A DNA stretch of 64,000 bases, from the NCBI GenBank assembly GCA_026122225.1, contig JANEZZ010001905.1:3077501-3141500 (forward strand). The letters are read 5' to 3'. The DNA is from Heloderma charlesbogerti. Lineage: Eukaryota > Chordata > Lepidosauria > Squamata > Helodermatidae. The position numbers and the translations under genes were made by a program. A model generated the notes under the pieces. That model was not told where the DNA came from and did no database searches. It saw only the letters and a program-made list of their open reading frames with translations. Shown here piece after piece: positions 7,857 through 62,400 of this stretch (the first letter of the stretch is position 1; each line of letters starts with the position of its first letter).

Positions 7857-8740
7857 TTTGTGGGCAGCCAATCCGTCCTCTGCCCACACTAATCAAGCGT
7901 ATCATTGGTGGGCGAAATGCAGAGCCCGGCTTTTTCCCCTGGCAAGTGCTAATTGTGGTGGAAGACACGTCCCGAGTGCCGAATGACCGGTGGTTCGGCA
8001 GCGGAGCCCTGCTCTCCGAGTCATGGGTGCTGACAGCCGCCCACGTCCTTCGCTCTCAGCGCCGGGACAACACCATTATCCCGGTCTCCAAAGAACATGT
8101 CACCGTCTACCTAGGCCTTCACAATGTGAAAAACAAGATGGACGCTGTCAACCGGAGAGTGGAGAAGATTGTCCTCCATGAGGCCTTTGACATCCAGAAC
8201 TACAACCACGACATTGCTCTGGTTAAGCTGAAGGAGAAGGTGGCCATGGGACCCTACGTCATGCCAGTCTGCCTACCGCAGTATGCACATGAATTGGAAG
8301 GACCTCAGCCCAACACACTGGGCCTGGTGGCGGGCTGGGGCATTTCCAATCCCAACATCACGGTGGATGAGGTCATCAGCTCAGGCATGCAGACCCTATC
8401 TGACATTCTGCAATACGTCAAGTTACCGGTGGTGTTCCATGCTGAGTGTAAGATGAGCTACGAGTCCCGATCCGGTAACTACAGTGTGACTGAGAATATG
8501 TTCTGTGCCGGATACTATGAAGGTGGGAAGGACACCTGCCTCGGAGACAGTGGCGGCGCATTTGTCATCCAAGACCTTAACAGCCGGAGGTGGGTGGCTC
8601 AAGGACTCGTCTCATGGGGCGGACCAGAGGAGTGTGGGAGCAAGCAAGTCTACGGGGTCTACACCAAGGTCTCCAACTATGTGGGCTGGCTGCAAGAGAA
8701 GAGTGGATGGACATTCGTGGACGCTGACGTGGGCAGATGA
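7857..8740 (+). CDS. MASP1: MASP1 gene, MASP-3-specific serine protease exon (terminal exon of that isoform)
   Basis: A single exon encodes the whole trypsin-like domain of MASP-3, the protease that activates pro-factor D in the alternative complement pathway. It follows a TTTTCTCTTTCCAG acceptor and ends at TGA 8738-8740. It starts V-C-G-Q-P, with the cysteine that links to the rest of the chain, and then has the activation site K-R|I-I-G-G. The catalytic histidine is in TAAHVL, the aspartate in NHDIAL and the serine in GDSGG. The Asp in GGKDTC gives an S1 pocket of trypsin type. The usual cysteine after the catalytic His is absent (AAHV, not AAHC), and the catalytic serine is coded AGT. Both are known marks of the MASP-2/MASP-3/C1r/C1s branch. 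One possible N-glycosylation site is NIT and another is NYS. The frame is fully open and looks intact. An ATTAAA at 9159-9164 could serve as its polyadenylation signal (weak). Confidence 0.95.
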
Positions 8741-11700
8741 GCTGAGTATCAAAGCAAGGGCTGGGGATATTTTGCCAGGACAGCATCGAAGCTCAGTTGT
8801 GTCAGAAGTATTTTGTGGGCCACTATGGACCATGTTTTTCCCACCCACAGAATAAGTTTACAATTGTTATTAATTGGTGGAAGGAGGATCCAGATAACTC
8901 TCCTGTACATAGTGCCTCTGTTAAAGGAATATCACATTTTCTAAACACTCACACTGTAATATCTTGTTACTGGGATAAGGCCATCCCCCCACCCCATTCC
9001 AACATGAATGCATCAGTTTGTGACTGGGAATGCTGCATGGAATGCGTTTCAGCAAGCATCATAGACCACACCACCACCACCATGCCACAGAATAGGGCCT
9101 GTGGGATCATTTGCAAGGCAACTCTCATCCCCAGCCTTCCAATGCCTGCACTGAGGCCATTAAACGTGTGCTTGATTCTGTCATTAAAATCAGACTTCAA
9201 GGTGCTTCACTTGAGGATGATCATGCCCACTCTCTGAACCAGGAAGGGGGGGTCCAGGATCACATTGGATATAAGTTTTATTTGGTGATGGATGAACTCC
9301 GGCCCACCTTGATTCAGAATTAAACTCTGCAAACTTGGCTAGTATCCCCCAAAATGGGAAAATAGCTCAGTTTGTTCTGAGCCCAGTTCCGAGCCTGCCC
9401 CTGGGAGTGAACAGTTACAAGCCCTCCAAAAGGCCCACCCCCCTACAAGTCCTCGGAGCCTGCCCCATCACTTCCTTCCCACCTTCCTAACCTGACAGCA
9501 GAGTTGGCAGCGATGGTGAGAAGGGGGGGGGTGCCTCCATTCCAAACACCTGCTGGAATGCTCTTCTGACAGCATCTCAAGTGCCAGGGTCCAAATTACA
9601 TTTCCCAGGGCAGTGAACATCTTTGTATGCAAGCACATGCTTGTCACATTCACACTTCACATTTTTAGGGTGTGCCCTTAACAATCATAGGTGTACACCT
9701 AAAATATGTAACAGGTGGCCCTTAAAAGTACTTTGCTTTGGCTGAATTGGGCCCTGACTGTGGACATTGCAGTAGTCATGCTATCAGCCCACCCCTCAAA
9801 AAGGTTCTTTTCCCCCCAAAATGCACATTTTGCTTGCCTCCTCCACTTTCTGTTTAACCCGCCAGCCTGACACTGAAAGCATGGGAAGGCACTACCTGAA
9901 TGCATCCTCTATATTTGACTTTGTCTGACAGACAATATGTTGGTGATTTGAGTTGCAACTAAGTGCTATGTTATACACACACAGAGAGACACACCCGCTA
10001 GCCCTCTCTAGCGGCCTCTTTAATTATAGAGGGAAGTGCTTGTTTTTTAAATGACACAATTATGAATTTTAAATGACACAGTTATGAAAGAAAACATTGA
10101 CTTGTAGGGCCTGTGACTGAAAACTCTGCACCAAAGCTTTAATTCTATGGGTTTCTTGGGGGTGCTTGGTGCCCATAAACTCAGGATTCACAGTCCCCCC
10201 CCTTTCCCCTCCTTCCCATGCGCAAGAGAAATATATGTCCAAGCCATTGTGTTAGAAGGGAAAATGTACATGCTTCTTGTATAGGAAAGACATTACAGTG
10301 AACATTTTGTTTCTTTACTCTGTGCCACACTGCTTAAAGCACCCTTCTCCAACCTGATGTCCTCCAGATGTGTTGGACTGCAACTCCCATGTGATCAGAC
10401 ACATGCTTTGCATGCAGAAGATTCCCCAGAATCTCCAGTTAGCATAGGGAAAACCCTGGAGAGCCGCTGCTGCCAGTCAGTGTTGACAACACTGGGCTAG
10501 ATGGACCAATGGCCGGACTCCCGGATAAGGCAGCTTCCGATGTTGCTAACCCTTTCTATTCTGACTGATAAAAGAGTGTAACTCAAAAACATGCATACTT
10601 TACCACTACCAAAAGTTGGTCCAATGGAAGATAAATAACTCTTACTCTCTTGGCTCCTTTTCATCAAAAGGCTGAGACATCATTCATATAAACCTCAGAA
10701 ACACTCCCAGGACGGATAAACTTTTTTTTTTTTTTTTAGTAAAAAGGACTGGGTTTTCCTCACTGTCCATCAGGTCAAACCCTGAAGTTCTTACTCACTG
10801 GTTACTCACTCATCCATTAGGATCTTACCTGAGTAGATGGTAATCAGGAAATCAAGCACTGAAATAATCCAAAGAAAGAGGGTCTTCTGTTACAATACAT
10901 GGTTAGAAAAATATTCTTGGCTCTGTTACATATTTAAGAGATATTATGCTGTTTGTTATGGGTTTTATACTCCGTTTTGTAGTATTCCTAATATTATGTA
11001 TTACAATCTTTAGAAAGAAAGGAATAAAACTATTGTGTTACATACAAATCTCTGTGCATCAAGAATTGCGTTGAGGGTACTTTGTGTCGTAAACTGGATT
11101 GTTGCACCATGGAAGTGAAATAAGGAGCTCTGCATCCACATCCCAAATTTCAATCATCCTAACAATGACATGATTTTGGCCTATGAAATATATTTAGGAA
11201 TCCATCTCAATGGAGCCTGAGTTTCCATATTCAAAAAATCAGAATCAGATTTCTCTGCCACAATTCAAAGCTGACCTCAAAAATAAAAACAAAATCAGTA
11301 TCCCATCCCCAAAATCAGAAGCTAAATTATTGGTGTGAAAAAGGCACATTTGGTCATTCTTCTGTCAGATGCTCTCTTGGTCCAATCAGAATATTCATTC
11401 TATAGGCAGATGTAGAATTTCAGACATCCTGTCTCTGGGGTGTAACACTTAACAAATCCAACTCTATGTTTGATGTAGAATAGCAAACATGTTTGTTACT
11501 ACTCTAGTTTACAATTTGGTTTCTACCCTAGTTCATTGTCACTGGAAGACCCAGGACTGTAGATCCAGAGCATATGACCCAGTATTGTAGTGTTGTGTGG
11601 GTTTAATTGCCAAGTGAGTGTTCTTTCTTGTTTTGATCCTTTCCGGGCCAAACTAGACAGGACATTAAGTGCATCATTACTTATATGTGTCTGCAAGAGA

Positions 11701-12297
11701 CAGACATAAACACTAGTTGCAGAATGATCACAATCAAAGCAATCCATTCTCCAGTGCAAACAGGGTCAGACCAACCACAGCATGGAAGAGCCATCAACCC
11801 CAGTTGCCACGTCTTTGGGATGGATGCCAAGCAACTAGATACATGGTGATACCCCTACCAATTCCAACTGGGCAATGACCAACATTGTCCAGCTGAGGCT
11901 GAAATTAGGTGGTGGGAAGAGAGCGGGAAACAGATGTGGTTCATCACAGGCACTCCCAGGAGCAGGCAAGCAAAGTGAGGCTCAGAAGCAACAAATGGGC
12001 TACCCTGGCTCTGATTTTTAAAGGGATTTTACCACTCCGTTACCAGGAGAGTAGTGTGATCCCACCAAGCAAAAAGGTAAGTACAAACATTTCTCATTGC
12101 ACTGCACCAGGGCCCAAATGGACCTCAGGGTACCAGCTAGGATGTCCACTTCCTTGCATCGGTGCAAGGATTATGCAGCAGCCGCCCTCCCTCTCCCTCA
12201 ACCCCTTTGCAAGCACCTGGATCTGAGCCACTGCCAGCATCTCAGGAACAATCCAGATCTCCTAGCTCCTAAGTCCTGCTGTTCCCTTCTTTTTCAG
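8741..12297 (+). other. MASP-3 3' UTR and intron before the MASP-1 protease exons
   Basis: The first part is MASP-3 3' untranslated sequence of unknown length. Further on are half of a foldback element (10345-10400) and a SINE 3' part (10403-10545, CCCTGGAGAGCCGCTGCTGC and ACTGGGCTAGATGGACCAAT). The remainder (10600-12250) is AT-rich and looks unique. I see no exon. Confidence 0.5.
10403..10545 (+). mobile_element. tRNA-derived SINE, 3' part
   Basis: CTTTGCATGCAGAAG, then GAGAGCCGCTGCTGCCAGTC, then GATAAGGCAGCTTCCGATGT. Same family as 15003-15165 and 20091-20520. Confidence 0.75.
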
Positions 12298-12432
12298 TGT
12301 GTGGAAAGCCAAAGTTCTCCAGAAGCCTGCTGGCCCGTATCGCTAATGGACGCTATGCCCAGAGAGGGATCTCGCCATGGATTGCCATGCTACACAAGAA
12401 CGGACGCCCCTTCTGTGGAGGCTCACTTCTAG
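12298..12432 (+). CDS. MASP1: MASP1, MASP-1 protease domain exon 1 (activation site)
   Basis: First of six exons for the MASP-1 serine protease domain, the alternative to the MASP-3 exon about 4 kb upstream. MASP-1 cleaves MASP-2 and C2 when mannose-binding lectin or ficolins bind sugars. The exon follows TTCTTTTTCAG and ends before GTAAGA. It reads V-C-G-K-P-K-F-S-R-S-L-L-A-R|I-A-N-G-R, with the activation bond after the last Arg, and runs to the conserved FCGGSLL. The new N-terminus is Ile-Ala-Asn-Gly rather than the textbook IVGG; the human enzyme also departs from it (IFNG). It is phase 1 at both ends, matching the CCP2 exon at 846-920 and the next exon at 13832. Confidence 0.93.
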   Translation, partial: CVESQSSPEACWPVSLMDAMPREGSRHGLPCYTRTDAPSVEAHF

Positions 12433-13831
12433 GTAAGAACCTCTTGGCATGAGTGGGATCTGCAGAAAAGGAAACGTTCAAGAGGATCTTGAAATGCAGT
12501 GGTCTCATCCATTCCAGAATATTGCTCTTTCGAGAACTGGGGTGGCTAGATTGTGTCTGGGACAGACAGACCTCATGTGCCGTTGCACAGAATGGAGAAT
12601 TTGAATGCACATCGTTTCTTCCATTGCATCTGGGCTATGACAGGAGAAGTAGCCCGAGAGTCGGATGCTAATCATTAGAAAGAAGTCTGTAATTGTGTTA
12701 GGGGTCCTGGAGATCTGGAACCAGTTGTCAAGCTGTCATGCCTAATGAGCTTTCAAAGCCAGCCAGGATTAATTACTGGATTAAACTGACTGCATTAATT
12801 AGGTAAACTTGCCTTGCAACATATGGAGAGTAATCTAGCCCATTCAATGCATCAACACAAGCATTGTTTTCTTTTGCACCATCACCTGGCTGGGAGGGAC
12901 AGGGAACAAGAGGAAATGTTTTCTGGAGGGCCAAACATCTCTGACCATGAGCATTTGTAGAGACAGATAGTTAGGAGGAAGCCAGTCACCTCCTCCTTGG
13001 CAGGCCTGTCCCAAGATATTTTGCAATCCCAACCAAGTGGCTTTGTAAAGCAACTCAGTGCCCATTCAAAACCCAGATTCAACTCCACCAGAGTTTGAGA
13101 GAGAGGAACCTAGGGTCCAGGGGAGGTGGAGCTGTTTCCTGATCTCTGGGGGTGGAGCTAAGGCAGGACATATATAAGCTTTCAGAAATGGAGATTAGCC
13201 ATTTCTTCTCTATCCCAACATGCACTGCTAGATGTGATCTGATACCTACCACTACCTAAGCAACACCTACCACTGACTAATTCATTCCGACTACAAATCT
13301 CCATTTTGAGACTGGGTCTATCTAAACTGCAGACTCATGGGCATAACACCTGGCCAAATGTTTGGACTTTTCTGTTTCTTCCCCCATCCTCAGCTTTTTG
13401 TACCACCTAGCCTGAAGTCTGGCAAACTCAAAAGCTTGCACATATTTGTGGAAATTTGGTTGGAACTAATGAAGGTATTGCCCGACTGTGGATTTTGGAT
13501 TTTGTAACCTGTGACTTCTGACCTCGCCTTCTCTAGCTTGCTTCACCAGGCTAATCGGTGATCTAGGAGGGATAGGTTCATAGAATCATAGAATAGTAGG
13601 GTTGGAAGGGGCCTACAAGGCCATCAAGTCCAACCCCCTGCTCAATGCAGGAATCCAAGTCAGAGCATCCCTGACAGATGGCTGTCCAGCCTCGTCTTGA
13701 ACACCTCCAGTGTGGGGGAGCCCCCCACCTCCCTAGGGAATCGGTTCCATTGTCGTATTGCTCTAACAGTCAGGAAGTTTCTCCTGATGTTCAGCCAGAA
13801 TCTGGCTTCTTAGCACCTTCTTGTTTCCTAG
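12433..13831 (+). other. MASP1 intron between protease exons 1 and 2
   Basis: Mostly unique-looking sequence, with the CR1 end at 13571-13803 pressed against the exon 2 acceptor. Confidence 0.6.
13571..13803 (-). mobile_element. CR1 LINE 3' end next to splice acceptor
   Basis: The reverse of the CR1 end starts at ATAGAATCATAGAATAGTAG and runs through the last coding region to CAGCCAGAATCTGGCTTCTT. It stops about 28 bases before the exon 2 acceptor. Confidence 0.9.
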
Positions 13832-13945
13832 GCAACAAATGGATTGTGACCGCTGCTCACTGCCTCCACGATGAACTGGAGCTGGAGAACCCTGTCCTCA
13901 GAAGCAGTGATGTGATCAGCCCTTCGTCATTCAAGGTTATCCTGG
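13832..13945 (+). CDS. MASP1: MASP1, MASP-1 protease domain exon 2 (catalytic His)
   Basis: Encodes G-N-K-W-I-V-T-A-A-H-C-L-H and continues to SFKVILG. The catalytic histidine is followed by the histidine-loop cysteine, which MASP-1 keeps and MASP-3 lacks. Acceptor TTTCCTAG, donor GTAAGC, phase 1 at both ends. The exon is joined upstream almost directly to a CR1-type LINE 3' end in reverse orientation, which stops about 28 bases before the acceptor. A reading frame runs from the LINE straight into the exon, so exonisation is conceivable, but the normal acceptor is well placed. Confidence 0.93.
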
Positions 13946-14029
13946 GTAAGCGAGTGCCAGTTATAGAGGAGGGCAACATCCATCTTGAAGGATAAGGGTG
14001 GATTTCTATCTGTCTGTCTGTCTGTCCAT

Positions 14030-14627
14030 CAGCTATTGTAGGGCTGGGAAAAGTGCAGAAAAGGGCAACCAAAATGATCAAGGGCTGGAGCATCTTCCCT
14101 ATGAGGCAAGGTTATAAGAGCTGGGACTGTTAGCTTAGAGAAAAGGCGAGTGAGGGGGGACATTATAGAGGTGTACCAAATAATGCATGGTGTGGAGAAA
14201 GCGGATAGGGAGGCATTTTTCTCCCTCTCTCATAATACCAGAAGCCAATGGGGTCATCCCATGAAACTGATAGGTGGGAGATTCAGGACAGAAAAAAGGA
14301 AAGACTTCTTCATACAGTGCATAGTTAAACTATGGAACCCGCTACCACAGGATGTAGTGATGGCGACCAACTTGGATGGCTTTAAAAGGGGTTAGACAAA
14401 TTCATGGAGCATAAGGCCATCCATGGCTACTAGTCCTGATGACTATATGCTAACTCCAGTATCAGAGGAAGTATGCCCAAGTTGCTGGGGAATATGGCTT
14501 GGAGGGTGCTGTTGCACTCATGTCCTACTTGTGGGCTTCCCAGTGGGGCAGCTGGTTGGCCGCTGTGTGAACAGACTGCTGGACTAGATGGACCTTGGTC
14601 TGATTCAGTATGGCTCTTCTTATGTTC
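14030..14627 (+). mobile_element. LINE 3' end (CR1-superfamily, second subfamily)
   Basis: Reads through AGGGGGGACATTATAGAGGT, TTAAACTATGGAACCCGCTA and TTGGATGGCTTTAAAAGGGG to CAGTATGGCTCTTCTTATGT. The same family occurs at 28283-28805 and 40210-40557. It ends 16 bases before the exon 3 acceptor. Confidence 0.85.
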
Positions 14628-14643
14628 CCTCCTCCCCTTGCAG

Positions 14644-14829
14644 GAAAACACAGAACCCACAGGCAAGACGACACAGAGCAACTGCTCCAACCCCAAATGC
14701 TCTACATCCATCCATCTTACAAGCCTGCCACCTTTGAGCATGACATTGCCCTGGTGGAGCTGTTAGAGGAGGCCAGGCTGAATGATCACGTGATGCCGGT
14801 TTGCTTCCCAGATGGCCTCCACCAAAAAG
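14644..14829 (+). CDS. MASP1: MASP1, MASP-1 protease domain exon 3 (catalytic Asp)
   Basis: Acceptor CCTCCCCTTGCAG, donor GTGAGG, phase 1 at both ends. It reads G-K-H-R-T-H-R and continues through LYIHPSY to EHDIALVELLEEA and HVMPVCFPDG. The Asp of EHDIAL is the second catalytic residue. The Cys of MPVCFP is the partner that ties the protease to the CCP2 side in this family. A LINE 3' end (14030-14627) finishes only about 16 bases upstream of the acceptor, leaving just the pyrimidine tract between. Confidence 0.93.
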
Positions 14830-15002
14830 GTGAGGATGTGGGCCCCCTCCTTCAACCCACAATGTCAGTTCAGGAAGCAGATCGCTAAACCAACTAAATT
14901 CCTCAGAATGAAGTCCATCCAGGAGGTAAAGGGTAGACCTTAAATAGAAGGGTTGTTTTATTTACTGCCTCTCACTAAATTGTTAATAGCAAAACATTGG
15001 GG

Positions 15003-15165
15003 AACAACCATAGCTCAGTAGCTGAGCTGCGCATCTGTCTGGCACGCGGAAGGTCCCAGCTTCGATCCCCAGCATCTCCAGGTAGGGCTGTAAAAGATAT
15101 GCAGTCTGAAACCCCAGACAGCCATTGCTGCCTGGCAGTGTCGACAGTACTGGGCCAGATGGACT
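15003..15165 (+). mobile_element. tRNA-derived SINE
   Basis: CATAGCTCAGTAGCTGAGC (A-box) and CAGCTTCGATCCCCAGCATC (B-box), then ACAGTACTGGGCCAGATGGA. Confidence 0.8.
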
Positions 15166-15659
15166 GAAGCGAGGGACAACTTGTGCTCCCTCTCACCGCC
15201 GCATGCCCCCATCCTCCACCCCCTTACCTTTGATGGCTGGGGGAAGCAGCCTCCCAGGTCTCGCGAGACCCGGCTGAGTTCCCATGGGATTTCACAAGAC
15301 CCAGCCAAGCTGTCACGGGATCTCACAAGGCCACTTCTTCTGGCTGCGCGGCTCTCGCAGGTGCTCCAGACAGCCCCCTTAGCAGCTGTCTTGCTCCGGG
15401 GCACCCGCTGGCAACACTGGCCCCTCCTGGATGGCAATGGGGGGGAGCAGCTCAATCTGCCACTCCTCCAGCTCCGCTGCCTGATGCAGGCACATTAGCC
15501 TACGGAATGATGGAGCCGGCCCTGCTATTGACAACATAAAGATGCCACTCCCTGTTGAGTTTTGGCTGGTTAAAACATGGGCGTTCCAGAAGCAGATGGG
15601 TTTCCTCCTGTAGGGGACCCAGGGGGCATGCAAAATTCCAAATTCGACAAGCAGCAGGT

Positions 15660-16100
15660 GAGTCAGCCAACCCGTTTCCCCTTTATTTGCCCATCTGAGG
15701 CCCTCCTCCAGGTGCCTCCTCTGAGGGAAGCTCAGAAGGCCGCAGTGAGGGAGACAGCCTTCTCAGTGGTGGCCCCCCCATCTGTGGAATGAGCTCCCCA
15801 TTGAGGTCCACCTGGCGCCAACGTTGTTATCTTTTCGGCGCCAGGGTAAGACCTTTCCCTTTTCCCCAGGCGTTTGGCAGCACGTGATGGGTTTTAATCG
15901 GTTCTGAATGTGTCTTTAGTTATGCCTGACAGTTCAAAGTTGTTTTTAGTTATATGTTGTTTGTGTAGATTGTCTGTGTGCTTTTATGTAAATGGAACTG
16001 TTTATATTGTATTTAATGTTTTCACTTCTCTAAACTGCCCAGAGAGCTTCAGCTATGGGGCGGTACAGAAATATGATGGTGATGGTGATGGTGATGATGG
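15660..16100 (+). mobile_element. L2-like LINE 3' end
   Basis: Carries the remnant of the last coding part (GAGACAGCCTTCTCAGTGGT and TGTGGAATGAGCTCCCCATT) and the ending AACTGCCCAGAGAGCTTCAG and GGGGCGGTACAGAAATATGA, with a (GGTGAT)n tail. Confidence 0.85.
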
Positions 16101-16234
16101 AACTGCTACAAGCAGGGGAGTCGCTTACACTGACTCCCCCAATCAGAACTTGAAGGCTATCTTGTGCTACTGCCAAAACTCAGACACACAATGTTTTAAT
16201 TTCTGGGATGTGGTGTGCAAACGAAACAAGAAGG

Positions 16235-16350
16235 AAGCCTTCCCCAACCTGGTGCCCCCAGATGCGTTAGACAACAACTCCCAGCATTCCAGATAGTGGG
16301 AGCTGTAGTCCAACACATCTGGAGGCACCAGGTTGGGGAAGGCAGCAATA
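16235..16350. repeat. Foldback element, nearly perfect
   Basis: The arms GCCTTCCCCAACCTGGTGCC and GGCACCAGGTTGGGGAAGGC are exact inverted repeats around ACTCCCAGCATTCC. Confidence 0.9.
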
Positions 16351-16639
16351 AGCCTTGGCTTTCAAAATCCTCTCCCATCCCTTTGCCATTTCCATTGCCG
16401 CCATGGGCGTGGTGCCAGGTGAGTGGCTTCATCATGGCAGAGTCCACCTTGCGCTGGCCCTTCTAAGAGCGAGCTGATTGAAAGAGGGTGGGGCGCGGCA
16501 GGGGCAGGCTTAGGCTGCTATACCAACTGCAATCCTATCTGGATGGAGATAGCCCAGCTACAGTTGTCCATGTTCTGTGAACCTCTCACTTGGATTCCTG
16601 CAATGCCTTATCCGCAGGGCTGCCTTTGAAAATGGCACA

Positions 16640-17340
16640 GAAACTTCAGCTGGTCAGTGAGATTTATGATCTGCACTGGCTGCCAGTCCATTTGGCATAT
16701 TGCCAGTCCATTTGCCAGTCCATTTGGCATTTTCCAGTCCACTGGCTGCCAGTCCGTTTTTGATCTGCCAGTGGTCATTTCTTATGAGCTTCGGCTATTG
16801 GGCAGTATAGAAATGAAATAGATATATAAAATAAATAAATTATGATCTGCACTGGCTGCCAGTCCATTTCCTGGCCAAATCCAAGTGCTGGTATTAACCT
16901 GCAAAGCCCTAAATGGCTTGGGGCCAGGTTACATGAAGGATTGTCTCCTTCCATACGTACCTGCCTGGACCTTAAGATCATCCTCAGAAGCCCTTCTACA
17001 GGTACCCCTGCCAAAGGAAGTGAGGTGGGTGGCTACTAAGGAGAGGGCCTTTTCTGCTGTGGCACCCGGTTGTGGAATGAGCTTCCCAAAGAGGCTTGCC
17101 TGGCGCCTCTTTGCCTGTGGTCTTTTTTGCTCCAGGTCAGCTTTTTAGCCCTTCAGTTTTAAAAATTGTGTTAGTGCGTTTTTAGATCTTTGCACTGCTG
17201 CTGGGTTTTATCTTGATTACTGCTTTTGTTTTATTCTGTTTTAAACTTATGATTTTTTATTATGTTTTGTTATGTTCTTGTATTTCATGATTTAAGCTTT
17301 GTCTTGTAAACTGCCCAGAGAGCCTCGGCTAATACATAAA
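16640..17340 (+). mobile_element. L2-like LINE 3' end with internal duplication
   Basis: GATCTGCACTGGCTGCCAGT occurs repeatedly at 16640-16870, including short tandem copies of 'TTTGGCAT..CCAGTCCA'. Then come GGCTTGGGGCCAGGTTACAT and the terminus AACTGCCCAGAGAGCCTCGG. Confidence 0.8.
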
Positions 17341-17344
17341 TAAT

Positions 17345-17455
17345 TAACAACCTGGTGCCCTCCAGACCACAACTCCCATCATCCCTGGACTTTAGGCATG
17401 CTGACTGGAGCTCTTGGGAGTTGTAGTCCCAAACATCTGGAGGCAAACACCAAGT
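17345..17455. repeat. Foldback element
   Basis: AACCTGGTGCCCTCCAGACC paired with GGGAGTTGTAGTCCCAAACA and AACACCAAGTTGCC. Confidence 0.75.
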
Positions 17456-17683
17456 TGCCTATATCAGTGTAGAGTATCCAGTGGGCTGTAACCAGAGCCT
17501 TCCTAACCCATGATGAGGTAAGAAAAGGCTGTAGATTTTATGGCGCATCATGAAGGGCAGCACAGGGAGAGGTATTCAGATCTACCAGAATGTTCTTATG
17601 CAAGCCCCGTTGTGACAGCCTCCTTCCTCTCCTGTGCCACTTCCCTGATGCTAATGCAACGGCTGCCTGTTTCTTTCCGCCAG

Positions 17684-17751
17684 ATGCCATGGTCATTGTC
17701 ACCGGATGGGGGAAGCAGTTCTTGCAACGTCTCCCAGATGCCCTGATGGAG
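17684..17751 (+). CDS. MASP1: MASP1, MASP-1 protease domain exon 4
   Basis: Short 68-base exon after TTTCTTTCCGCCAG, with donor GTGATG. It reads (D)AMVIVTGWGKQFLQRLPDA and ends LME. The TGWGKQFLQR stretch is almost identical to the mammalian MASP-1 sequence as I remember it. It enters in phase 1 and leaves in phase 0. Confidence 0.92.
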
Positions 17752-18153
17752 GTGATGCTGCTGTTATAATATATATATAACTGAAGGATGCCATATGCTC
17801 AGGTAGCAGATATGGGAGGCATATTCACTGCCACCCTCTTTCAGCTTTTTTTTTGTGCTGGAGGATGCTCAAAGTTGAAACTCGCCCCACTGTGGGGATC
17901 CTATGAACCAGAAGGCAGCTTGCAATTCACTGTCAGAAAGCAACAGGAGACCGGCTGGAAATCCCACACCGAACTCCAAGCAGGAAAGGCTGTAAACAGA
18001 TGTGGATTTCACAAGCCTGCCATCCTGCCGTGATAGCTCTCCCAGTCCCTTCCCTCCCACCTTGTTCTGGAAACCTCCCGTCATGCCTCCTGCTTGAACC
18101 ATAAAATAATTGGTGACATTAGCAAGAAAACAAATCATAGCATAAGCAACTGT

Positions 18154-18516
18154 GGGCTTTTCTACATGAGGTAGTTAATCCACTGCATCCACTTTCAGCT
18201 TCGTCGCAGAATTGAGGTCCCAGCACTACACGAGGAGCGTTTCCTTTCCTGCTTTCCCACTACATAACCTCTAGGTGGCACTGTGGTATAGCGGAATAGC
18301 ACAAATACACAAGCATTTTCTTTCACCATCAGAAATAATACTCCATTTTCCCTGCTCTAAAAAACACACATCAAAAGTGCTGTTTACAAACAGAAGCAAA
18401 ACTGGACGGTCATGACCTTGTCTAAAGAACCCGTCAACAAGCGTGAGTAGGGAATGATGACTGCACAACAAACGACTCATGTAGAAAAGCTCACTGACAG
18501 TTCTTGCACTGCAGGC
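18154..18516 (-). mobile_element. Short TIR DNA transposon ('GAGCTTTTCTACATGAG' family)
   Basis: Starts GGGCTTTTCTACATGAGG and ends CTCATGTAGAAAAGCTC, with CCTCTAGGTGGCACTGTGGT inside. Further copies lie at 30191-30525 and 44780-45115, and a partial one near 26853. No coding sequence; probably a MITE. Confidence 0.75.
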
Positions 18517-19149
18517 TGCCTGATATCTGGATCCTGGGGTTTTCTCGGCTGCCTGCACTGGCCCTAGGGAGAGTCATGTCAGAGCAGCACTGCCAAGTTG
18601 TAGACTGAGCCCTACAATGAAAACGTGATGATTTTATTCATGTTCAAACTAGGCATGAGAGCAACAGGCTCACTTGTTTAAACCCTGGAACGCCTGGAAC
18701 TGGAACTATATCTCTGAGTGCCAGGGTCCAGGAGACTCGGCAGGTCAGTGAAGGAGATGCTTCCATGGGTCAGCATCTATACCACCCACCTGTCCTATCC
18801 GCTGAGTCCATCTATATCTCCTTCTCGCCCACTCCCTTCCAAGCCAAGAGCTTCGCGCTTGGACTTGTATCATCAATTGCCAGTGGCCAGAAGACTGTCA
18901 TACATTCCACCACCACCCCAGATACCCCCATCTGAATTTGTATGTGGATTTTAATAGTAAGCTGGTTTGAAAGTCACTCTTGGCTGAAAAGTATAGCATA
19001 AATAAATATAATCAATACTAGAAATAAACAAGCCCAGGTCTCTCCTGATCCCTTATAAAATAGGGTAGGGGATCTAATTTTTAGTGCAAAGTGGAGACAC
19101 AGGTGAGGGGAGTGAAGATGAATTTAATAATTAATTAAATTAATCTTGG

Positions 19150-19212
19150 ACGAGTTGGACTCAATGGTCTTATAGGCCCCTTCCGACCCTACTATTCTAT
19201 GATTCTATGAAA
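19150..19212 (+). mobile_element. CR1 LINE 3' terminus
   Basis: GAGTTGGACTCAATGGTCTT and TACTATTCTATGATTCTATG, the CR1 end with its ATTCTATG repeats. Confidence 0.85.
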
Positions 19213-19289
19213 TAAAAATATAATAATAAAAAATAATAATTTTCAAGGTGGCTCAAATTATTTTAGAAAGGCAAGCTACGCATCTTTCA

Positions 19290-19420
19290 AATAAACCACC
19301 CTTCTCCAAGATATTTTGGCCAACAGCTCCTGGCCTTCTTGCCCACTGGCCATGCTGGCTGTGGCTGATGGGAGCTGAAGTCCAAGACTGGACTTGGACT
19401 TTCTCCAGATTGGAGAAAGC
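19290..19420. repeat. Foldback element
   Basis: GGCCATGCTGGCTGTGGCTG lies between imperfect inverted arms (CTTCTCCAAGATATTTTGG and TCCAGATTGGAGAAAG). Confidence 0.6.
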
Positions 19421-20090
19421 TGAAATAAACAATAAATAAACCCTCCCCGTGTCCACAATGTATGCCATACAGATTCTCCCCAAAGAGTTTCTCTCCCTGT
19501 ACCCCAAGCTCATGTCTGGTACTGGAGCTCAGGCGAGGAGGAAACTAGTTCACGGAACAGACTGCGGAGGGCCGCACCATATGTGGCAGGAGAGGGTCAG
19601 GGTTAGGGCACACAGACACCTGCATGCTTATTTTGCTCTAGAAAACAAGGGTCCCCAACCCACAACAGCCCACTTTATATGCGATTAAGCAGCCAGGCTG
19701 CCTCCATCATCTGTAATTTGAGCCCGTATACCCAGAACACATTTTTCTTGATTCGGAAGAAGAAACTCCGTGTCCTTAGAGTGGGTACATGCAATACTAA
19801 TAGCACACAGTGGGAATTTCTGGCTACACGTCAGCTTGACTGAATCATAGCTTCGCTAGAAATGTATGGCTGTTGTACTCGCATGGCTGTTGTCCTCACA
19901 AAGACTCCTGGGGGTTGCAGTTTGGTGGGCTGCTGTGCATTCTCTTCTAGAGATCTCCAGGGGCCCTCATGGAACAACAAGTCCTGGAGTTCACTGCAGG
20001 GAGAGAATGACTCTTTGACCAGTTTAATTCTGTGCGGTAGCAATATGCCTTCAGATGCAATGCCCTGGAGGAGGAGGAGAGGAGGAGGAG

Positions 20091-20520
20091 GGCTGTGGCT
20101 CGGTGGTAGAGCCCCTGCTTTGCTTGCAAAAGATCCCAGGTTCGATCCCTGGCATCTCCAGGTAGGGCAGGGAAAGAGTGCCAGTCAGTGTAGACCAGGG
20201 ATTTAGAATCTCAGGCCCGGGGGGCAAATCCGACCCTCTGGGGTTCTCCAGATGGCCCTGCCCCCATCCCTGGTTGGAACTGCCTCTCCTAAGGCTTAGT
20301 TACCGGCAGTAACAGCTTTCAGTTAAAACATGCTTATAGTTGGGGTATTTTGGCCCCTCCCCTTTTGCCTTCAGCCCCACACACCCCTGGAACGCGGCCC
20401 TCAGGAGCCTCTCCAAATTGGAATTTGGTCCTTGGTCTGAAAGAGGCTCAACACCCCTGAAGACAATGCTAACCTAGATGGACCAATGGTCTGATTTGGT
20501 ATAAGGCAGCTTCCAATGTT
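20091..20520 (+). mobile_element. tRNA-derived SINE split by a hAT-like insertion
   Basis: The 5' part has GGCTGTGGCTCGGTGGTAG (A-box) and CCCAGGTTCGATCCCTGGC (B-box) and stops at GTGTAGAC (20195). The 3' part resumes after 20460 with GACAATGC and CCTAGATGGACCAATGGTCT, then TATAAGGCAGCTTCCAATGT. Confidence 0.88.
20196..20459 (+). mobile_element. hAT-like non-autonomous element nested in SINE
   Basis: Ends CAGGGATTTAG and CAACACCCCTG. Internally it shares GGTATTTTGGCCCCTCCCCT and GCCTTCAGCCC with the element at 33748-34109. Target duplication is decayed (AGAC remains on both sides). Confidence 0.75.
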
Positions 20521-20589
20521 TCAGAAGAGAGGGCCATTTGGGCATGGGAGGGCAGTGAGCCATTTATCTCATCTGTCCAACTGATTTAG

Positions 20590-21300
20590 TACATTTTTTT
20601 TTGCTGCATTGCATTGATTACTGCAATGTGCTCTACATGGGGCTGCTCTTGAAGACTGTTCAGAAGCTGCAGCTTGTGCAAAATGCAGCAGCCAGATTAA
20701 TAACTGGGACCAGAGGGTCTGCGCATAAAACACCAATTCTGGCCCAATTGCACTGGTATGGTTCCAAGCCCGATTCAAGGTACTGGTTTTGACAAAGCCT
20801 TACACAGCTCGGGACCACAGTACCTGATGGTGTGCTTCTCCCAGCATAAACCTATCCAGACACTACACTCAACATCTGAGCCTTCCCTCTGAGTGCCTCC
20901 TCCAAGAGAGGCTCAGAGGGTAGCAATAAGGGAGAGGGCCTTCTCAGTGGTGGCCCCACGATTTTGGAACAATCTCCCCACAGTGTCATCCTTTCGGCAC
21001 CTGGTTAACATTGTCCTCTACTCGCAGGCATTTAATGACATATGACGGGGCATTTATGTCAACTATCTTTATCAGGTCTAGTATCTTATTGAAAAAAATT
21101 TAGCTGTTTAACTTTTTAAAAATTTTGTATGTTAACAATTTTATACTATGTTTTTATTATCTTGTATTTCTGCTTAGTAATTTTTGTGAACTGCTCAGAA
21201 AGCGTCAGCTATTGGGAAGTATAGAAATGATGATGATGATAATAATAATAATAATAATAACAACAACAATAATAATAAATACAACAACAACAACAACACT
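20590..21300 (+). mobile_element. L2-like LINE 3' end with (ATA/AAC)n tail
   Basis: CTGCAGCTTGTGCAAAATGC, GGGAGAGGGCCTTCTCAGTG and GAACTGCTCAGAAAGCGTCA, then a long ATA/AAC tail (21225-21300). Confidence 0.88.
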
Positions 21301-21316
21301 TTTGGGTGTGTTGCAG

Positions 21317-21416
21317 ATTGAGATCCCGTTGACAGACCACACAGTGTGCAAGGAAGCTTATGCCAAGCTGCAGAAGGTTGTGACAGAGGATATGATCTGT
21401 GCTGGAGAAAAACAAG
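21317..21416 (+). CDS. MASP1: MASP1, MASP-1 protease domain exon 5
   Basis: Begins in phase 0 with I-E-I-P-L-T-D-H-T-V-C and ends with the conserved DMICAGEKQ before GTAAAA. Two cysteines (TVC and MIC) give the usual disulfide of this part of the trypsin fold. The acceptor (GGGTGTGTTGCAG) has a poor pyrimidine tract because the (ATA/AAC)-rich tail of a LINE lies directly upstream, ending roughly 16 bases before the AG. Confidence 0.92.
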
Positions 21417-22094
21417 GTAAAATCCAGGGTGGGCATGAAAGTCCATTCAAATGTCTCGAAAAAAACGTTCTTCCCAGGTTTTTCTTTAACTTATTTCTCA
21501 AAAACCACATTTTGGGATATCCCTGCAGCTGGAGCCATAGCCATATCAGGGCTCAGGGGGCTGCCCCTCCTAAATTTTCTCTTTCCCTCTAAATCTTTTT
21601 ACAAACAAATAATGAAAAAACAGTTCACAATTTTGTATTTAAGAAGCCTGCAAACCAAATGAACTGCCCCCCTATCCCCCCCCCTCCCGCCAGAACTTTT
21701 AGGCTGGCTACAGGTCTGCCTGCAGCCCTTTTTCTCCTAGCTCGATTCCAAGACTGCTAATAATCCGACCTATGAGAAAACATCCCGGGGCTGGGAAGGA
21801 AGGCTGTGGGGAGGGCAGATGGACGACGGGGACGTCATCTCCCCTCTTCGACCCACAACTTCTCTTTCTCGAAATCTCCCTACCCCATTGGTTTACAAAT
21901 GTTCACAATGTGTGCCCTTAGATGCAGGTCTGCAGCTGTTACGGTTTGTCTGGCCCTTTGTTTGTTATTGTCAGATCAAACCTTGAGTTTCGAGCTTTCC
22001 TTCAAAACGAATCCAAATCTGAAGGTTCTGTGGAATTTCATTTGATTTGGCATCTCAAGGGCGGATATTATGACATGAAAAAACTGCCTCATAC

Positions 22095-22268
22095 GGAGTG
22101 AGGCCATCAGTCTTCCTGGCCCAGTGTTGCTTGCTCTGGCTTGCAGAAACTCTGGAGAGTCCCGGGCTGACGTCCTTCCCAGCAACAGCTACTGGAGATA
22201 TTTTATCAGGAGATACCAAGAATTGAACTCAGGACCTTCCGCATGCAAAGCATGTGCTCTAGTGCTGG
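22095..22268 (-). mobile_element. tRNA-derived SINE
   Basis: Reverse of the SINE: GGACCTTCCGCATGCAAAGC and CTCTAGTGCTGGGCTGTGC. Confidence 0.7.
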
Positions 22269-22304
22269 GCTGTGCTTTTTCTCCATCGCCACCTCTTCCA
22301 AACA

Positions 22305-22425
22305 GGGACATCTCACCAACCCAGTGCCCTCCAGATGCATTTGGCTAGAATTCCCATCATCCCCAGCCAGATGGTGGGAGTTGTAGTCCAACACATCCGG
22401 AGGACGTCAGGTGGGGGAAGGCTAT
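22305..22425. repeat. Foldback element
   Basis: CCAGTGCCCTCCAGATGC is paired with CATCCGGAGGACGTCAGGTG around AATTCCCATCATCCCCAGCC. Confidence 0.8.
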
Positions 22426-22554
22426 CCAAAAAAGTATCGTGCCAAGTGGTCCCTTCAGGGACATGGAGTCGAGGCACTGACGGACATCCTGTTCGTATCA
22501 TGCACGAATTCATGCAGAACAGCACCGGCTCCAGGTTTCGGAGGGCCCTTGGGC

Positions 22555-22880
22555 AAGACACGTGCAATGGCCCCCTCCCTCGGGGAGCCTCCCTTCTCAC
22601 TGCCAGTGTCATCCGCTGCTCTTGCTCCGCCTCCTCTTCCCCACCATTGCTCCCGCTGGCTTGCTTGGCAGGCAGAGGGGCAGTGAGCAAGGAGGCCGTG
22701 GCATCTCCTGCTCCTCCTTCTCACCACCACCATTGTCTGGGCCAGAGCAAGAGGCAGGTGAATCACCAGGTTCCCCTGGTGAAGAGGAGGCACAACTCCA
22801 GGAGGTTCTTGCCAGTGGGCCCCTGATGGGAGGTGGGCCCTTAGCAGGTGCCTGGCCATGCCGACCCTTGACACTGGCCC
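22555..22880 (+). repeat. GC-rich dispersed repeat, copy 2
   Basis: Homologous to 4540-4815; ends CCCTTGACACTGGCCCTGAT. Confidence 0.6.
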
Positions 22881-22953
22881 TGATGCAGAATGTGGTGGCT
22901 TGTTCACACTTAAAGATGTCGTGCTGAGGCTTGTTTCTCTCTCTCTCACCTAG

Positions 22954-23144
22954 GAGGAAAAGATGCTTGCAGCGGCGACTCCGGAGGCCCCATGGTCACT
23001 TTGAGCAATCGCACCGGCCAGTGGCAGCTCATAGGGACTGTGTCCTGGGGCGATGGATGTGGCTTGAATGACCGCTATGGCGTGTACTCCAATGTTCTCC
23101 TGACTCTGCCGTGGATTAAGCGGATCACCGGAGTGGAATATTGA
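22954..23144 (+). CDS. MASP1: MASP1, MASP-1 protease domain exon 6 (catalytic Ser, stop)
   Basis: Terminal coding exon after TTTCTCTCTCTCTCACCTAG. It reads [16 protein letters not shown], then VSWGDGCG and YGVYSN, and ends ITGVEY-stop (TGA 23142-23144). The catalytic serine in GDSGG is coded TCC. This TCN type of serine codon, the histidine-loop cysteine in exon 2 and the split-exon layout are the known marks that separate MASP-1 from MASP-3. The Asp of GGKDAC gives trypsin-like S1 specificity. All three catalytic residues are present across the six exons and no frame is broken. Confidence 0.95.
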
Positions 23145-28280: not shown

Positions 28281-28282
28281 GC

Positions 28283-28805
28283 AAACAAAATGATCAGGAG
28301 GCTAGAGTAACTCCTCTCTGAGGAAAGGTTGCAATGTCTGAGGGTCTTTAGGTCAGAAAAAAGGTGAGTCAGAGGGGACATGATAGAGGCGTACAAAACC
28401 ATGCATGGCGTGGATAAAGTAGATTTTGTTGTTCAGTCGTTCAGTCATGTCCGACTCTTCGTGACCCCATGGACCACAGCACGCCAGGCCTTCCTGTCCT
28501 GCGCTCTCTCCCGGAGCGTGCTCAAGTTCATATTCATTGCATCGGTGATGCTATCTAGCCATCTCATCCTCTGCCGTCCCCTTCTCCTTTTGCCTTCAGT
28601 CTTATCTCCCCCTCTCATAATAATAGAACCCAACAGGGTCATCCCATGAAGCTGATTAGTGGAGATTCAGGACTGATCAAAGGAAGTCCTTCTTCACACA
28701 GTGCAGAGTGAAACAATGGAAGGAATTCACATCCACAAGATGCAGTGATGGCCACGAATTTGGATGGCTATAAAGAGGAAGTAGACCAATTCATGGAGGA
28801 TAAAA
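28283..28805 (+). mobile_element. LINE 3' end interrupted by a BovB fragment
   Basis: AAAATGATCAGGAGGCTAGA, AGGGGACATGATAGAGGCGT and TTTGGATGGCTATAAAGAGG belong to the same LINE subfamily as 14030-14627. Bases 28434-28612 are foreign to it. Confidence 0.85.
28434..28612 (-). mobile_element. BovB (RTE) fragment nested in a LINE
   Basis: GTTCAGTCATGTCCGACTCT and TGACCCCATGGACCACAGCA (reverse BovB end), cut off after TTCTCCTTTTGCCTTCAGTC. Confidence 0.9.
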
Positions 28806-54705: not shown

Positions 54706-54909
54706 TCAGTGCGGCTGCGCTCTGCGGTTCGCCCTCTTGTCCGAGGCAGCAGGGACAGGCTTCTCCTGCGGGAAGATGATGGTGGCATATTCTGTCCGGG
54801 CAGAAGGGGAGCGCTTGGGCGGGGAGGGCCTCCTTGCACTCCCTGCCACATGGAACTCCAGCACTCCATAATCCACTGTGAACACGGACATGCCGGGGGG
54901 CTCTTCTTC
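54706..54909 (-). CDS. PDCD1: PDCD1 (PD-1) final exon: cytoplasmic tail with ITIM and ITSM
   Basis: The minus strand reads E-E-E-P-P-G-M-S-V-F-T-V-D-Y-G-V-L-E-F, then ARTEYATIIFPQEKP, and ends at TGA 54706-54708. VDYGVL is the ITIM (VxYxxL) and TEYATI is the ITSM. The framing VF.VDYG.L.F and TEYATI.FP is the signature of the PD-1 tail, through which SHP-2 is recruited to dampen T-cell receptor signalling. The acceptor AG is at 54910-54911; an in-frame TAA lies nine bases before the exon (54916-54918), so the exon cannot extend much further. It begins in phase 0, as I recall for human exon 5. The 67-residue piece is shorter than the human exon and the part after the ITSM is not conserved. The short exon 4 between this and 62224 was not located. 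Confidence 0.85.
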   Translation of the reverse strand, partial: EEEPPGMSVFTVDYGVLEFHVAGSARRPSPPKRSPSARTEYATIIFPQEKPVPAASDKRANRRAQPH

Positions 54910-57472: not shown

Positions 57473-59479
57473 CTTCTCTCCAGCATGATTAAGTTTCCTC
57501 TATAGAGGGAACTTTAGGTCTATGAAGGAGCATTGAGGGCCACACTACACTTGACATGGAATGCGTCTTTGCCTTATACATGTAAATAGCATCCACTGTG
57601 GGGGGGTTGGGGGTTATAATGATCAGGATTGCAGCAGGCATGGTGGGAAGGATTTAACTCTTTCCTGCCCTGCTACAAGCTGAAGGAAAATCCCTCCTTT
57701 GAAGGGGCTATCTGCATTCGGGGGATCTCCCATTGGCACCAATGGGGAATTTCCACCAAAGAAAAAATACCAGCTTCAGAAGAATCAGGTGGTGTGTGTG
57801 TAGCATTTACTTTAAAAAAAAAAAACCTTGCACATTAAATGCAAAGAGGCCTTTGACTTCAGATCTAGTTTTGCCCCTCGTCATTTGAGCCTTCACTTGC
57901 AATCTAAAATGCTATAGCTCAGAGACACAAGCCAGCCACATCAGCGAAAATGACTAAAGGTGTCTCTACACCAGCGATTTACTGCATGCCCATGATTGGT
58001 CACTCACAGAAGTTTGCGGGTCCTTTACATGCCATCGTCAACCTCCAGGATGTCTCCCGCACATTCCCCCCTTTATCCCACTTTCAAAAAGATCAGAGAC
58101 AAGCTAGTAATGGCACCATATCGGCAGTGTGTAATGCCAGCGTAGCACTATGAACTTGCCAAGGAAGGACTTTCGTCAGTTCAAACCACGTGTCTACCAC
58201 GTAAATGCTTGAGCATATATTTCGATTGCAGGCCAGTCAGAGGGAGAAGAGGGTAAAATGTCTCCCTGCAATGAAGGGAGACGATCTGATCCCCCACTCC
58301 ACCAAGCTCAGAATCAGCGTCCTCTGTTGATTCAGAACACCCCATTAAGTTCAATGGGGCTTACTCCCAAGTAAGTGTGCCTAGGATCGCAGACTTACAG
58401 CACAATCCTACAGAAGTAAGTCATAGCTTTCCTGGTGGCTGCAAGGAAACGGTATAGCACAAGTTAAGCAATGAAAGCAAGACTCCCACTCCCCCACCCC
58501 TTTGCAGACATGCCAGGGAGGGAGGGAGGTGCTCCCTCCATGTCAGACTACGTATCTGCCGTGTAACAGAGCCCATCATGATCCCACAAAGAAACCAAAA
58601 GCAGAAAGCCACGGTAAGTATGCTGGGGGGTTGCTTAATGTCGAGATGCCCCAAAGCTTTGACCAAAAGGGAACTTACCAAGGGAGCATTTTCATCATGC
58701 AATTTCTCTTGCTCTGCAAAACAACATAGGTGATCAGAATTCATTCACTGTACAAGATGCCCTAGGAACAGAATGTTTACATCAGTAATCATCAACAACT
58801 TGGCTCTGTGTGTTTTTGAGTGTTGCAAAAATCCCTAGAAGATTGTGGTTTAAGTAGTATTATTTTTAAATGTACATTCACTACAGTACTGTTGTAACGT
58901 CATTTGCATCGGTATGTTGTTGCTTCAGAAACACAAATTACATTGTGCGTATACAAACAGTCCCCTCTAGAGCAACCAAAAGGAACATCATTTTTGTAAT
59001 CAGCATGTCATTACTATTTTAACAAGTTTTATGCTGTATGGGTACATTTTAAAAATGGTTAAACCTCCCCACATACTGTGGTCCCAATCCAGATCAGGCT
59101 GCCCTGAGCTTGATTTTCTTTATTAAAAAAATGCAAGCCACGCAGTTAGTCCCTTCGACTGGGTCTGTTTAGGGATGCCTCTTGTCCACAGCATGGGCGC
59201 AAGATGGTGCAGGCGTTTTCAGGACCAAACCAAAGAGCATGATGTAAAACTGTAATCCCCCTACAAAGGAAAAAAAGGCTAGCTGGAGAATTTCCCACAC
59301 GTTATGAGCCTGCAATTTTCCATAGACAACAGCACACCATGAACTTACTCAAATCTGTTGTCTTTCTCATTATCTATTTATTTTGCTTTTAATCCCTGCC
59401 CCCACCCCAGTAATAAATGTTATCTGGGTGGATTAGATAAAGATAAAAGCATAAAATACAATACAGGCAGGTTTTGTAA

Positions 59480-61365: not shown

Positions 61366-62223
61366 ATGTATACAGAAGTTGTCTCATGCTCTTGTTTCAA
61401 GTTAAAGGCTGATCCCAGGCCTAAAACGGTAGTACACATGATTTGGTTGAGAAATCAGTGTCACAAACTCTGTGTGTGTGTGTAAATTTAATATAAAATA
61501 TAGAGAGAATAATAATACAATTGTATATATTATTTATATTGATTTTTTTCTACAGTCCTGGCTAAAGTTTGAGATTGATTATGCAAAGAGAAGGGGAGAG
61601 CACAATTTCCTAGAAAACGAAATGAATGGAGAAGGAAACACAACCTAAGGTCTCTTGCCTGCATGAACAGTAGTTGTTCATTCAGCCCATAATCAATAAA
61701 GGGTGCAATCTTATGGGGATAGGCGGCTGCCTCCGAACTCAGAGTTGACCGCCTATCCAATGCAGGGCAGAAGAAGCACGGAGGGGATCGTTCCCTCCGT
61801 GCTTCTCCTGCCTTGCATTTGCGGCTAGACAGCTGATTTTGGCTGTCTAGCCGCGGGGAAGAGGCTGCCAGACGACACATAGGGTGTGTTGTACCGGCAT
61901 TTCTGCCTTCCCCCACCCCGGAACGTCTCCCAGAATGCCCAGTTTTGGCCGCTCCGTGCTCCTCTTCCAAGCGTGGAGCGTAGGGCTGTTCCGTGCTGCC
62001 TGCGAAGCAGCATGGAAGTGGGGGGAGGTCGTGTGTGGGCTCCAAGGTCGGTTCCTGGAAAACCACATATCCTATGGCTGTCTAGCCGCTGACTAGCGGC
62101 CATAGGATTGCCCCCAAAGTCTAAAATGAATTTGGGAGTTGGTTGCGCATAAACACAAGCCCAGCAAGGGTGCATAGGGAGTGGGGGCACACAGGTTGTC
62201 AGGTATGTAGCCCTCGTGTGTAC

Positions 62224-62400
62224 CTTGCTTTCTCCTGATGACGCAAGCGAGAAAGGAACATAAAAACACAAGCACCAAAACCAGTCCAGCTCCTCCAATA
62301 GCAGCAGCAATAGGAACGTTGTTGCCAGGTTGTCCATTGTTTTCAATGCTGGTCTTCTCCTCCTCCTCCTTTTCCCAAGGTCCCGGCTCAGGTGCTTTTT
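62224..62400 (-). CDS. PDCD1: Probable PDCD1 (PD-1) exon 3: stalk and transmembrane segment
   Basis: Acceptor TTTCAAATCCTCAG, then an open 177-base stretch reading KAPEPGPWEKEEEEKTSIEN, followed by a hydrophobic span (AAAIGGAGLVLVLVFLCSFL) and the basic stop-transfer CVIRRKQ. It ends with one base of a codon before a GTACAC donor. A phase 1-1 exon with an acidic, proline-containing stalk and one membrane span is what PDCD1 exon 3 should look like. It lies on the same strand and upstream of the unmistakable tail exon at 54706-54909. Sequence identity of stalk and membrane segments is never high in this family, so the assignment rests mainly on position, phase and layout. No Ig-V exon was found between here and base 64000. 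Confidence 0.62.

What the first reader, a model, noticed from the sequence alone, without database searches (positions are those of the whole stretch)
7857..62400. MASP1, an RTP gene cluster and PDCD1 lie within 64 kb
The sequence shows MASP1 protease exons, two complete RTP genes and a PDCD1 tail exon in one window. From established knowledge, human MASP1 and RTP4 are on chromosome 3q27, while PDCD1 sits on 2q37 next to RTP5. RTP genes thus accompany both human loci. This window could reflect an older joined arrangement that mammals split, or a squamate-specific fusion. It places an immune checkpoint gene beside interferon-type and complement genes.
Basis: partly seen in the sequence, partly recalled or inferred. 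Interest (0 to 1): 0.78.

Follow-up and report, generated by a model that had tools for sequence, protein, structure and literature searches.

The report
Old MASP1–RTP–PDCD1 neighbourhood in a lizard
In this lizard genome the complement gene MASP1, two RTP genes and the immune-checkpoint gene PDCD1 (PD-1) really are neighbours; other lizards and two birds show the same linkage, so it looks like an old vertebrate gene order that mammals broke up, much of it already in print.

Summary
The window carries the protease half of MASP1 (MASP-3 exon plus six MASP-1 protease exons), two intact two-exon RTP genes, an RTP fragment, and PDCD1 exons 3-5 with ITIM and ITSM. Flanks fetched from the same assembly show the PD-1 Ig-V exon (65390-65701) and signal-peptide exon (71795-71879) just beyond base 64000: a complete 270-residue PD-1. 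MASP1's 5' half runs to -78.5 kb, SST lies 146 kb to the left, DYNLT2B starts about 28 kb right of PDCD1, and the best PCYT1A match lies 19 kb from the end of another contig, fittingly oriented. Order: SST-MASP1-RTP-RTP-PDCD1-DYNLT2B-(gap)-PCYT1A. Except for PDCD1 these are human 3q27-q29 genes (partly recalled). A mis-join or a squamate-only fusion is very unlikely: PDCD1 and MASP1 share a contig in Rhineura, a gull and an egret (3.07-Mb scaffold); RTP and PDCD1 share one in Elgaria and Sceloporus. A 2024 paper reports pdcd1 linked to rtp, tctexd2 and pcyt1a in tetrapods and bony fish. So this is inherited gene order, the mammalian state (PDCD1 on 2q37) being derived. MASP1 beside PDCD1 was named in no text I searched, but it is a modest addition. 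I found no evidence that the adjacency has a function.

The parts
845..919 (+). MASP1 exon, second half of CCP2
   Evidence: tblastn with Rhineura P0132, 88% identity, E 4e-9
7856..8740 (+). MASP1: single-exon MASP-3 protease domain with stop
   Evidence: PDB 4iw4 E 1.5e-149; 93% identity to Rhineura
12294..23141 (+). MASP1: six exons of the alternative MASP-1 protease domain (about 12294-12449, 13825-13950, 14637-14828, 17686-17760, 21305-21418, 22953-23141; exact borders not settled)
   Evidence: tblastn with recalled human MASP-1 and with Hemicordylus P0169, 49-90% identity per exon; flanks printed
28031..28291 (-). RTP 3' fragment (copy a), 5' half missing, inside open frame 27785-28432
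   Evidence: Zn_ribbon_3CxxC 17.9 bits, below the 23-bit cut-off; 40.7% to RTPb over 91 columns
32771..33338 (-). RTPb exon 2
35124..35284 (-). RTPb exon 1
   Evidence: tblastn E 2e-5; GT donor
43099..43630 (-). RTPc exon 2
   Evidence: 72% to Elgaria P0001
45993..46132 (-). RTPc exon 1
   Evidence: 79% to Elgaria P0001, E 2e-21; GT donor
54706..54909 (-). PDCD1 exon 5: ITIM VDYGVL, ITSM TEYATI, stop
58679..58713 (-). PDCD1 exon 4 (35 bp)
   Evidence: AG/GT borders and kept frame
62224..62400 (-). PDCD1 exon 3: stalk and transmembrane segment
   Evidence: 55% to Elgaria PD-1, E 3e-17. Exons 2 (65390-65701) and 1 (71795-71879) lie outside the window

Best explanation
The window is a stretch of inherited, ancestral gene order in a lizard. 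Shown here: SST, MASP1, two RTP genes, PDCD1 and DYNLT2B lie in this order on one contig; the best PCYT1A match lies near the end of another contig in the fitting orientation; and in other lizards and in two birds PDCD1 shares a contig with MASP1 or with RTP. Inferred: this block, which corresponds to human 3q27-q29 with PDCD1 inside it, was present in the ancestor of lizards and birds and, with the published fish and frog linkage, probably in the bony-vertebrate ancestor. In the mammalian lineage rearrangement breaks beside PDCD1 left it, with an RTP neighbour (RTP5), on what is now human 2q37. Each gene is expected to work as its family does: MASP1 as a lectin-pathway protease gene with two alternative protease ends, RTPs as zinc-ribbon membrane proteins in receptor traffic or antiviral defence, PD-1 as an ITIM/ITSM checkpoint receptor. 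The neighbourhood itself needs no functional explanation.
For: Gene models; SST on the same contig; DYNLT2B exons; PCYT1A match 19 kb from the end of C3038. Equal contig lengths: RTP and PDCD1 in 2 of 2 shared species (Elgaria 115540514, Sceloporus 275632209); PDCD1 and MASP1 in 3 of 4 shared species with lengths (Rhineura 155512958, Rissa tridactyla 74012424, Egretta garzetta 3067157). PMC11599192: pdcd1 consistently linked to pcyt1a, tctexd2 and rtp in tetrapods and bony fish (passages). PMC12151841: similar PD-1 regions in bichir and Xenopus (section 9).
Against: The fourth shared species, Pterocles gutturalis, has PDCD1 on a 32704-base and MASP1 on a 29575871-base sequence, which I take for two assemblies. 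Only contig sharing, not order, was seen in other species. No reads were seen. PMC11599192 also calls the pdcd1 region not a large stable synteny set, while PMC7066927 calls PD1 synteny conserved among vertebrate clades. By recalled human positions RTP5 lies 5' of PDCD1, whereas the lizard RTPs lie 3' of it, so the mammalian state is not a simple lift of this segment.
Confidence: 0.88

Rival explanations
1. An assembly mis-join put PDCD1 beside MASP1 and RTP.
For: None direct. There is a 2500-N run just left of the window, but it lies inside MASP1, whose exons continue in order on both sides.
Against: No N in the window. The same pairs share contigs in five other species. DYNLT2B, a published pdcd1 neighbour, follows on the same contig.
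Confidence: 0.02
2. A squamate-specific fusion brought PDCD1 to the MASP1-RTP locus.
For: Human has MASP1 and PDCD1 on different chromosomes (recalled).
Against: PDCD1 and MASP1 share a contig in a gull and share a 3.07-Mb scaffold in an egret. pdcd1-rtp linkage is reported for bony fish too.
Confidence: 0.05
3. The cluster is kept together because MASP1, RTP and PDCD1 share immune, for example interferon, regulation.
For: With a loose ISRE-like pattern 5 sites occur in the window against a mean of 1.8 (4 of 100 shuffles reach 5), two of them about 0.2 kb and 0.9 kb upstream of the RTPc and RTPb first exons.
Against: The stricter pattern gives 2 sites (10 of 100 shuffles reach that), neither near an RTP start or PDCD1. 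SST, DYNLT2B and PCYT1A in the same block are not immune genes (recalled), and mammals split it.
Confidence: 0.05

Closest known systems
pdcd1-rtp-tctexd2-pcyt1a linkage in tetrapods and bony fish (PMC11599192; markers also in PMC12151841)
   Same: PDCD1, RTP and DYNLT2B (TCTEX1D2) on one contig, PCYT1A probably next
   Different: MASP1 and SST are added as left-hand neighbours at base level; the text searches found no mention of MASP1 there, but the papers' synteny figures could not be seen
Human 3q27-q29 and 2q37 (recalled positions)
   Same: SST, MASP1 and RTP1/2/4 are near each other on 3q27, DYNLT2B and PCYT1A adjacent on 3q29, PDCD1 beside an RTP gene (RTP5) on 2q37
   Different: In human PDCD1 is outside the chromosome-3 block, and RTP5 lies on the other (5') side of PDCD1
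Elgaria multicarinata webbii PD-1 and RTP3-like
   Same: Closest proteins found, 67% and 74% identity, both on a 115540514-base contig
   Different: Another species; gene order there was not seen

Membership tests
PDCD1 (PD-1) | Single Ig V-set ectodomain | tested here: met
   V-set 33 bits over cut-off 26; best PDB matches are PD-1, E 9.5e-15
PDCD1 (PD-1) | Cytoplasmic ITIM and ITSM | tested here: met
   VDYGVL and TEYATI in exon 5
PDCD1 (PD-1) | Signal peptide, IgV, transmembrane and tail exons in one open gene | tested here: met
   Five exons give 270 residues with no internal stop; exons 1 and 2 are outside the window
PDCD1 (PD-1) | Binds PD-L1 and inhibits T cells | not testable with these tools
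   -
MASP1 | CUB-EGF-CUB-CCP exons followed by MASP-3 and MASP-1 protease ends | tested here: met
   residues 361-407 of the Rhineura protein not found, possibly in the N run
RTP (receptor-transporting proteins) | Zn_ribbon_3CxxC domain in a two-exon gene | tested here: met
   E 6e-27 and 4.4e-22, splice sites
RTP (receptor-transporting proteins) | C-terminal transmembrane segment (reported for amniote RTPs, PMC8172065) | tested here: inconclusive
   Hydrophobic C-termini seen by eye in the translations (for RTPc); no predictor was run
RTP3/RTP4 subgroup | Groups with RTP3/4 in a tree | not tested
   Only best-match lists: lizard RTP3-like, turtle RTP4-like, bat RTP3
Conserved pdcd1-rtp-tctexd2-pcyt1a block | PDCD1, RTP and DYNLT2B linked | tested here: met
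   All on C1681
Conserved pdcd1-rtp-tctexd2-pcyt1a block | PCYT1A linked | tested here: inconclusive
   Best match is on another contig, C3038, 19 kb from its end and fittingly oriented; a second set of matches on C910 is taken for PCYT1B

The most novel reading that the evidence does not exclude
The human 2q37 pair PDCD1-RTP5 is a displaced remnant of one ancestral block SST-MASP1-RTP-PDCD1-DYNLT2B-PCYT1A, which lizards and birds still keep and which the mammalian lineage cut on both sides of PDCD1, with an inversion of PDCD1 relative to its RTP neighbour on the way.
Probability: 0.55. Interest if true: 0.42.

Novelty: new member of a known kind. Interest (0 to 1): 0.3.

Why it matters
It says which side of the amniote tree carries the old PD-1 neighbourhood: lizards and birds keep it and mammals are derived. 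That helps to find PDCD1 and RTP orthologues by position, offers an origin for RTP5, and warns against reading functional meaning into the human setting of PDCD1. It does not change what any of these genes is thought to do.

Tried and rejected
Rejected: squamate-specific fusion (birds share the linkage) and mis-join (other assemblies agree). A first scan for PDCD1 exon 1 printed nothing, because it demanded a GT[AG][AG]G donor and the real one is GTATG; Elgaria PD-1 then located exon 1. A shared-interferon reading was tested with two ISRE-like patterns and stayed weak. Ten long open frames, mostly from the stretches between the genes, gave no Pfam match at E 0.01 (10 of the 57 frames listed, besides the nine stretches scanned, of which one, at 25292, is a reverse transcriptase); the other frames were not scanned. 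The genome-wide RTP search gave 6 matches (13 candidates scored): two are the window genes, two overlap on C558 and are a broken copy, and C1721 and C1168 are below the family cut-off. A sialidase-family search, made to look for NEU4 (a human neighbour of PDCD1, recalled), gave 4 matches on C2179 (two), C3097 and C514, and none on C1681 or C3038; which is NEU4 was not resolved. The recalled claim that birds lack MASP-1 was looked for in text and nothing citable was seen. Copy number of PDCD1 in the genome stayed untested.
Full report
What is there. The window lies at C1681:3077501-3141500 of a 2.30-Gb assembly in 3246 contigs and contains no N. Left to right it holds the protease half of MASP1 on the + strand, an RTP fragment and two intact RTP genes on the - strand, and the last three exons of PDCD1 on the - strand.

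MASP1. The open frame 7823-8740 is the single-exon MASP-3 protease domain (PDB 4iw4, MASP-3, E 1.5e-149; 4kkd E 1.6e-156). Six further exons between 12294 and 23141 encode the alternative MASP-1 protease domain (with recalled human letters; with Hemicordylus P0169, 49-90% identity per exon). CUB, EGF and CCP exons lie at -78510 to -27290 and at 845-919. Rhineura residues 361-407 were not found; a run of 2500 N just left of the window may hide them. MASP1 therefore spans about 100 kb and keeps both protease ends.

RTP genes. RTPb (exons 35124-35284 and 32771-33338) and RTPc (45993-46132 and 43099-43630) each have two exons with GT and AG borders and an open frame. The script read RTPc correctly but shifted RTPb by one base; the corrected RTPb was scored. 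Zn_ribbon_3CxxC matches are E 4.4e-22 and 6e-27. RTPc is 74% identical to 'receptor-transporting protein 3-like' of the alligator lizard Elgaria. A further copy survives only as a 3' fragment at about 28031-28291. A six-frame search of the whole genome gave 6 matches from 13 scored candidates: these two genes, a broken copy on C558 (two overlapping rows), and two matches under the family cut-off. Only the two window genes look intact.

PDCD1. A motif scan found the tail with VDYGVL and TEYATI at 54.8-54.9 kb. Exon 5 is at 54706-54909, exon 4 (35 bp) at 58679-58713, exon 3 at 62224-62400 and exon 2 (Ig-V) at 65390-65701, with AG and GT borders at each junction. Exon 1 is at 71795-71879. The whole reads as 270 residues with no internal stop. 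The product of exons 2-5 has a V-set domain, its best PDB matches are PD-1 (E 9.5e-15), and its closest database relatives are PD-1 of Elgaria (67%), Varanus and Anolis.

Neighbours outside. SST lies on the same contig at 2931317-2931370, 146 kb left of the window. DYNLT2B (TCTEX1D2) exons lie at 101162-102972 in window coordinates; a first exon at about 100085 is likely by eye but scored only E 3.1. The contig ends at 110535 in window coordinates. A recalled human PCYT1A query gave 12 matches: seven on C3038 (578765-590114, - strand; 68-96% identity, highest scores) and five on C910. I take C3038 for PCYT1A and C910 for its paralogue PCYT1B. C3038 ends at 609473, 19 kb beyond the match. Turned round, it would continue DYNLT2B then PCYT1A with both genes in one direction, as in human (recalled). 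By hand estimate a random gene falls this near a contig end in the right orientation about 4% of the time, so this is supporting, not decisive. The two contig ends share no long overlap.

Is it a mis-join? The protein database gives the length of the contig behind each protein; equal lengths in one species are taken to mean the same contig. The fourth, Pterocles gutturalis, has PDCD1 on a 32704-base sequence and MASP1 on one of 29575871 bases, which look like two different assemblies. I counted these by reading the tables. The egret scaffold of 3067157 bases shows close linkage in a bird. Assemblies of lizards and birds would hardly share one mis-join. Gene order in those species was not seen.

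How old is it? PMC11599192 (passages) states that pdcd1 was consistently linked to pcyt1a, tctexd2 and rtp in tetrapods and bony fish, and that the region differs between mammals and reptiles or amphibians; [quoted passage not shown] PMC12151841 (section 9; passages) describes similar PD-1 regions in bichir and Xenopus, with markers that in human lie on chromosomes 2 and 3, so the old chromosome may have carried both human gene sets and the mammalian change may be a fission beside PDCD1 rather than a jump of PDCD1 alone. PMC7066927 (passages) calls PD1 synteny conserved among vertebrate clades without naming these genes in the passages seen. PMC8172065 (passages) reports RTPs as generally syntenic, with bird RTPs near RTP3/4 and reptile RTPs near both RTP1/2 and RTP3/4. 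With human MASP1-RTP1 adjacency (recalled), the simplest reading is one ancestral block with PDCD1 inside it, broken in the mammalian lineage.

Is it known? The PDCD1-RTP-DYNLT2B-PCYT1A part is in print. MASP1 beside PDCD1 was not found in these searches: PDCD1+MASP1+synteny+chicken (its one hit concerns PDCD10, passages), PDCD1+RTP5, RTP4/MASP1/SST/synteny, PDCD1+MASP1+RTP4 and PDCD1+DYNLT2B+PCYT1A; in most of these I saw only the listing. The library is open-licence PMC text, and the synteny figures of the key papers were not readable. The addition is therefore small: MASP1 and SST as left-hand neighbours, seen at base level in one lizard.

Function. Nothing here shows that the adjacency matters. 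ISRE-like sites near the RTP starts are little above chance with a loose pattern and absent there with a stricter one. SST, DYNLT2B and PCYT1A in the same block are not immune genes (recalled). I regard the neighbourhood as inherited linkage.

Limits. Human chromosomal positions beyond those in the cited papers are recalled. Copy number of PDCD1 in this genome was not tested, because those calls did not complete. No reads and no expression data were available.

Noticed in passing
G000:C2883:757000-757053 and C2883:797034-797747: A second somatostatin-family match and the genome's strongest trypsin-domain match lie 40 kb apart. If they are CORT and MASP2 (not tested), they mirror SST-MASP1 and would be a paralogous pair of neighbourhoods.
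   Followed up: no
G000:C558:1027709-1027972: A broken RTP copy, up to 83% identical to RTPc exon 2 in DNA, with frame shifts and stops.
   Followed up: partly
20089-20160: A tRNA-Ala-like sequence inside a MASP1 intron, 35.4 bits in Rfam and also found by ARAGORN; possibly part of a tRNA-derived repeat.
   Followed up: no
25292-26457 and 47103-47777: Retroelement remains: a reverse-transcriptase domain at 25292 (E 1.4e-18) and a frame at 47103 that looks like a BovB-type LINE (by eye, no Pfam match).
   Followed up: no
12294-23141: This lizard keeps the MASP-1 protease exons; loss of MASP-1 in birds is recalled and was not confirmed in the texts searched.
   Followed up: partly
just left of base 1 (contig 3075001-3077500): A run of exactly 2500 N ends where the window begins, inside MASP1; an assembly gap or a withheld stretch.
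   Followed up: no
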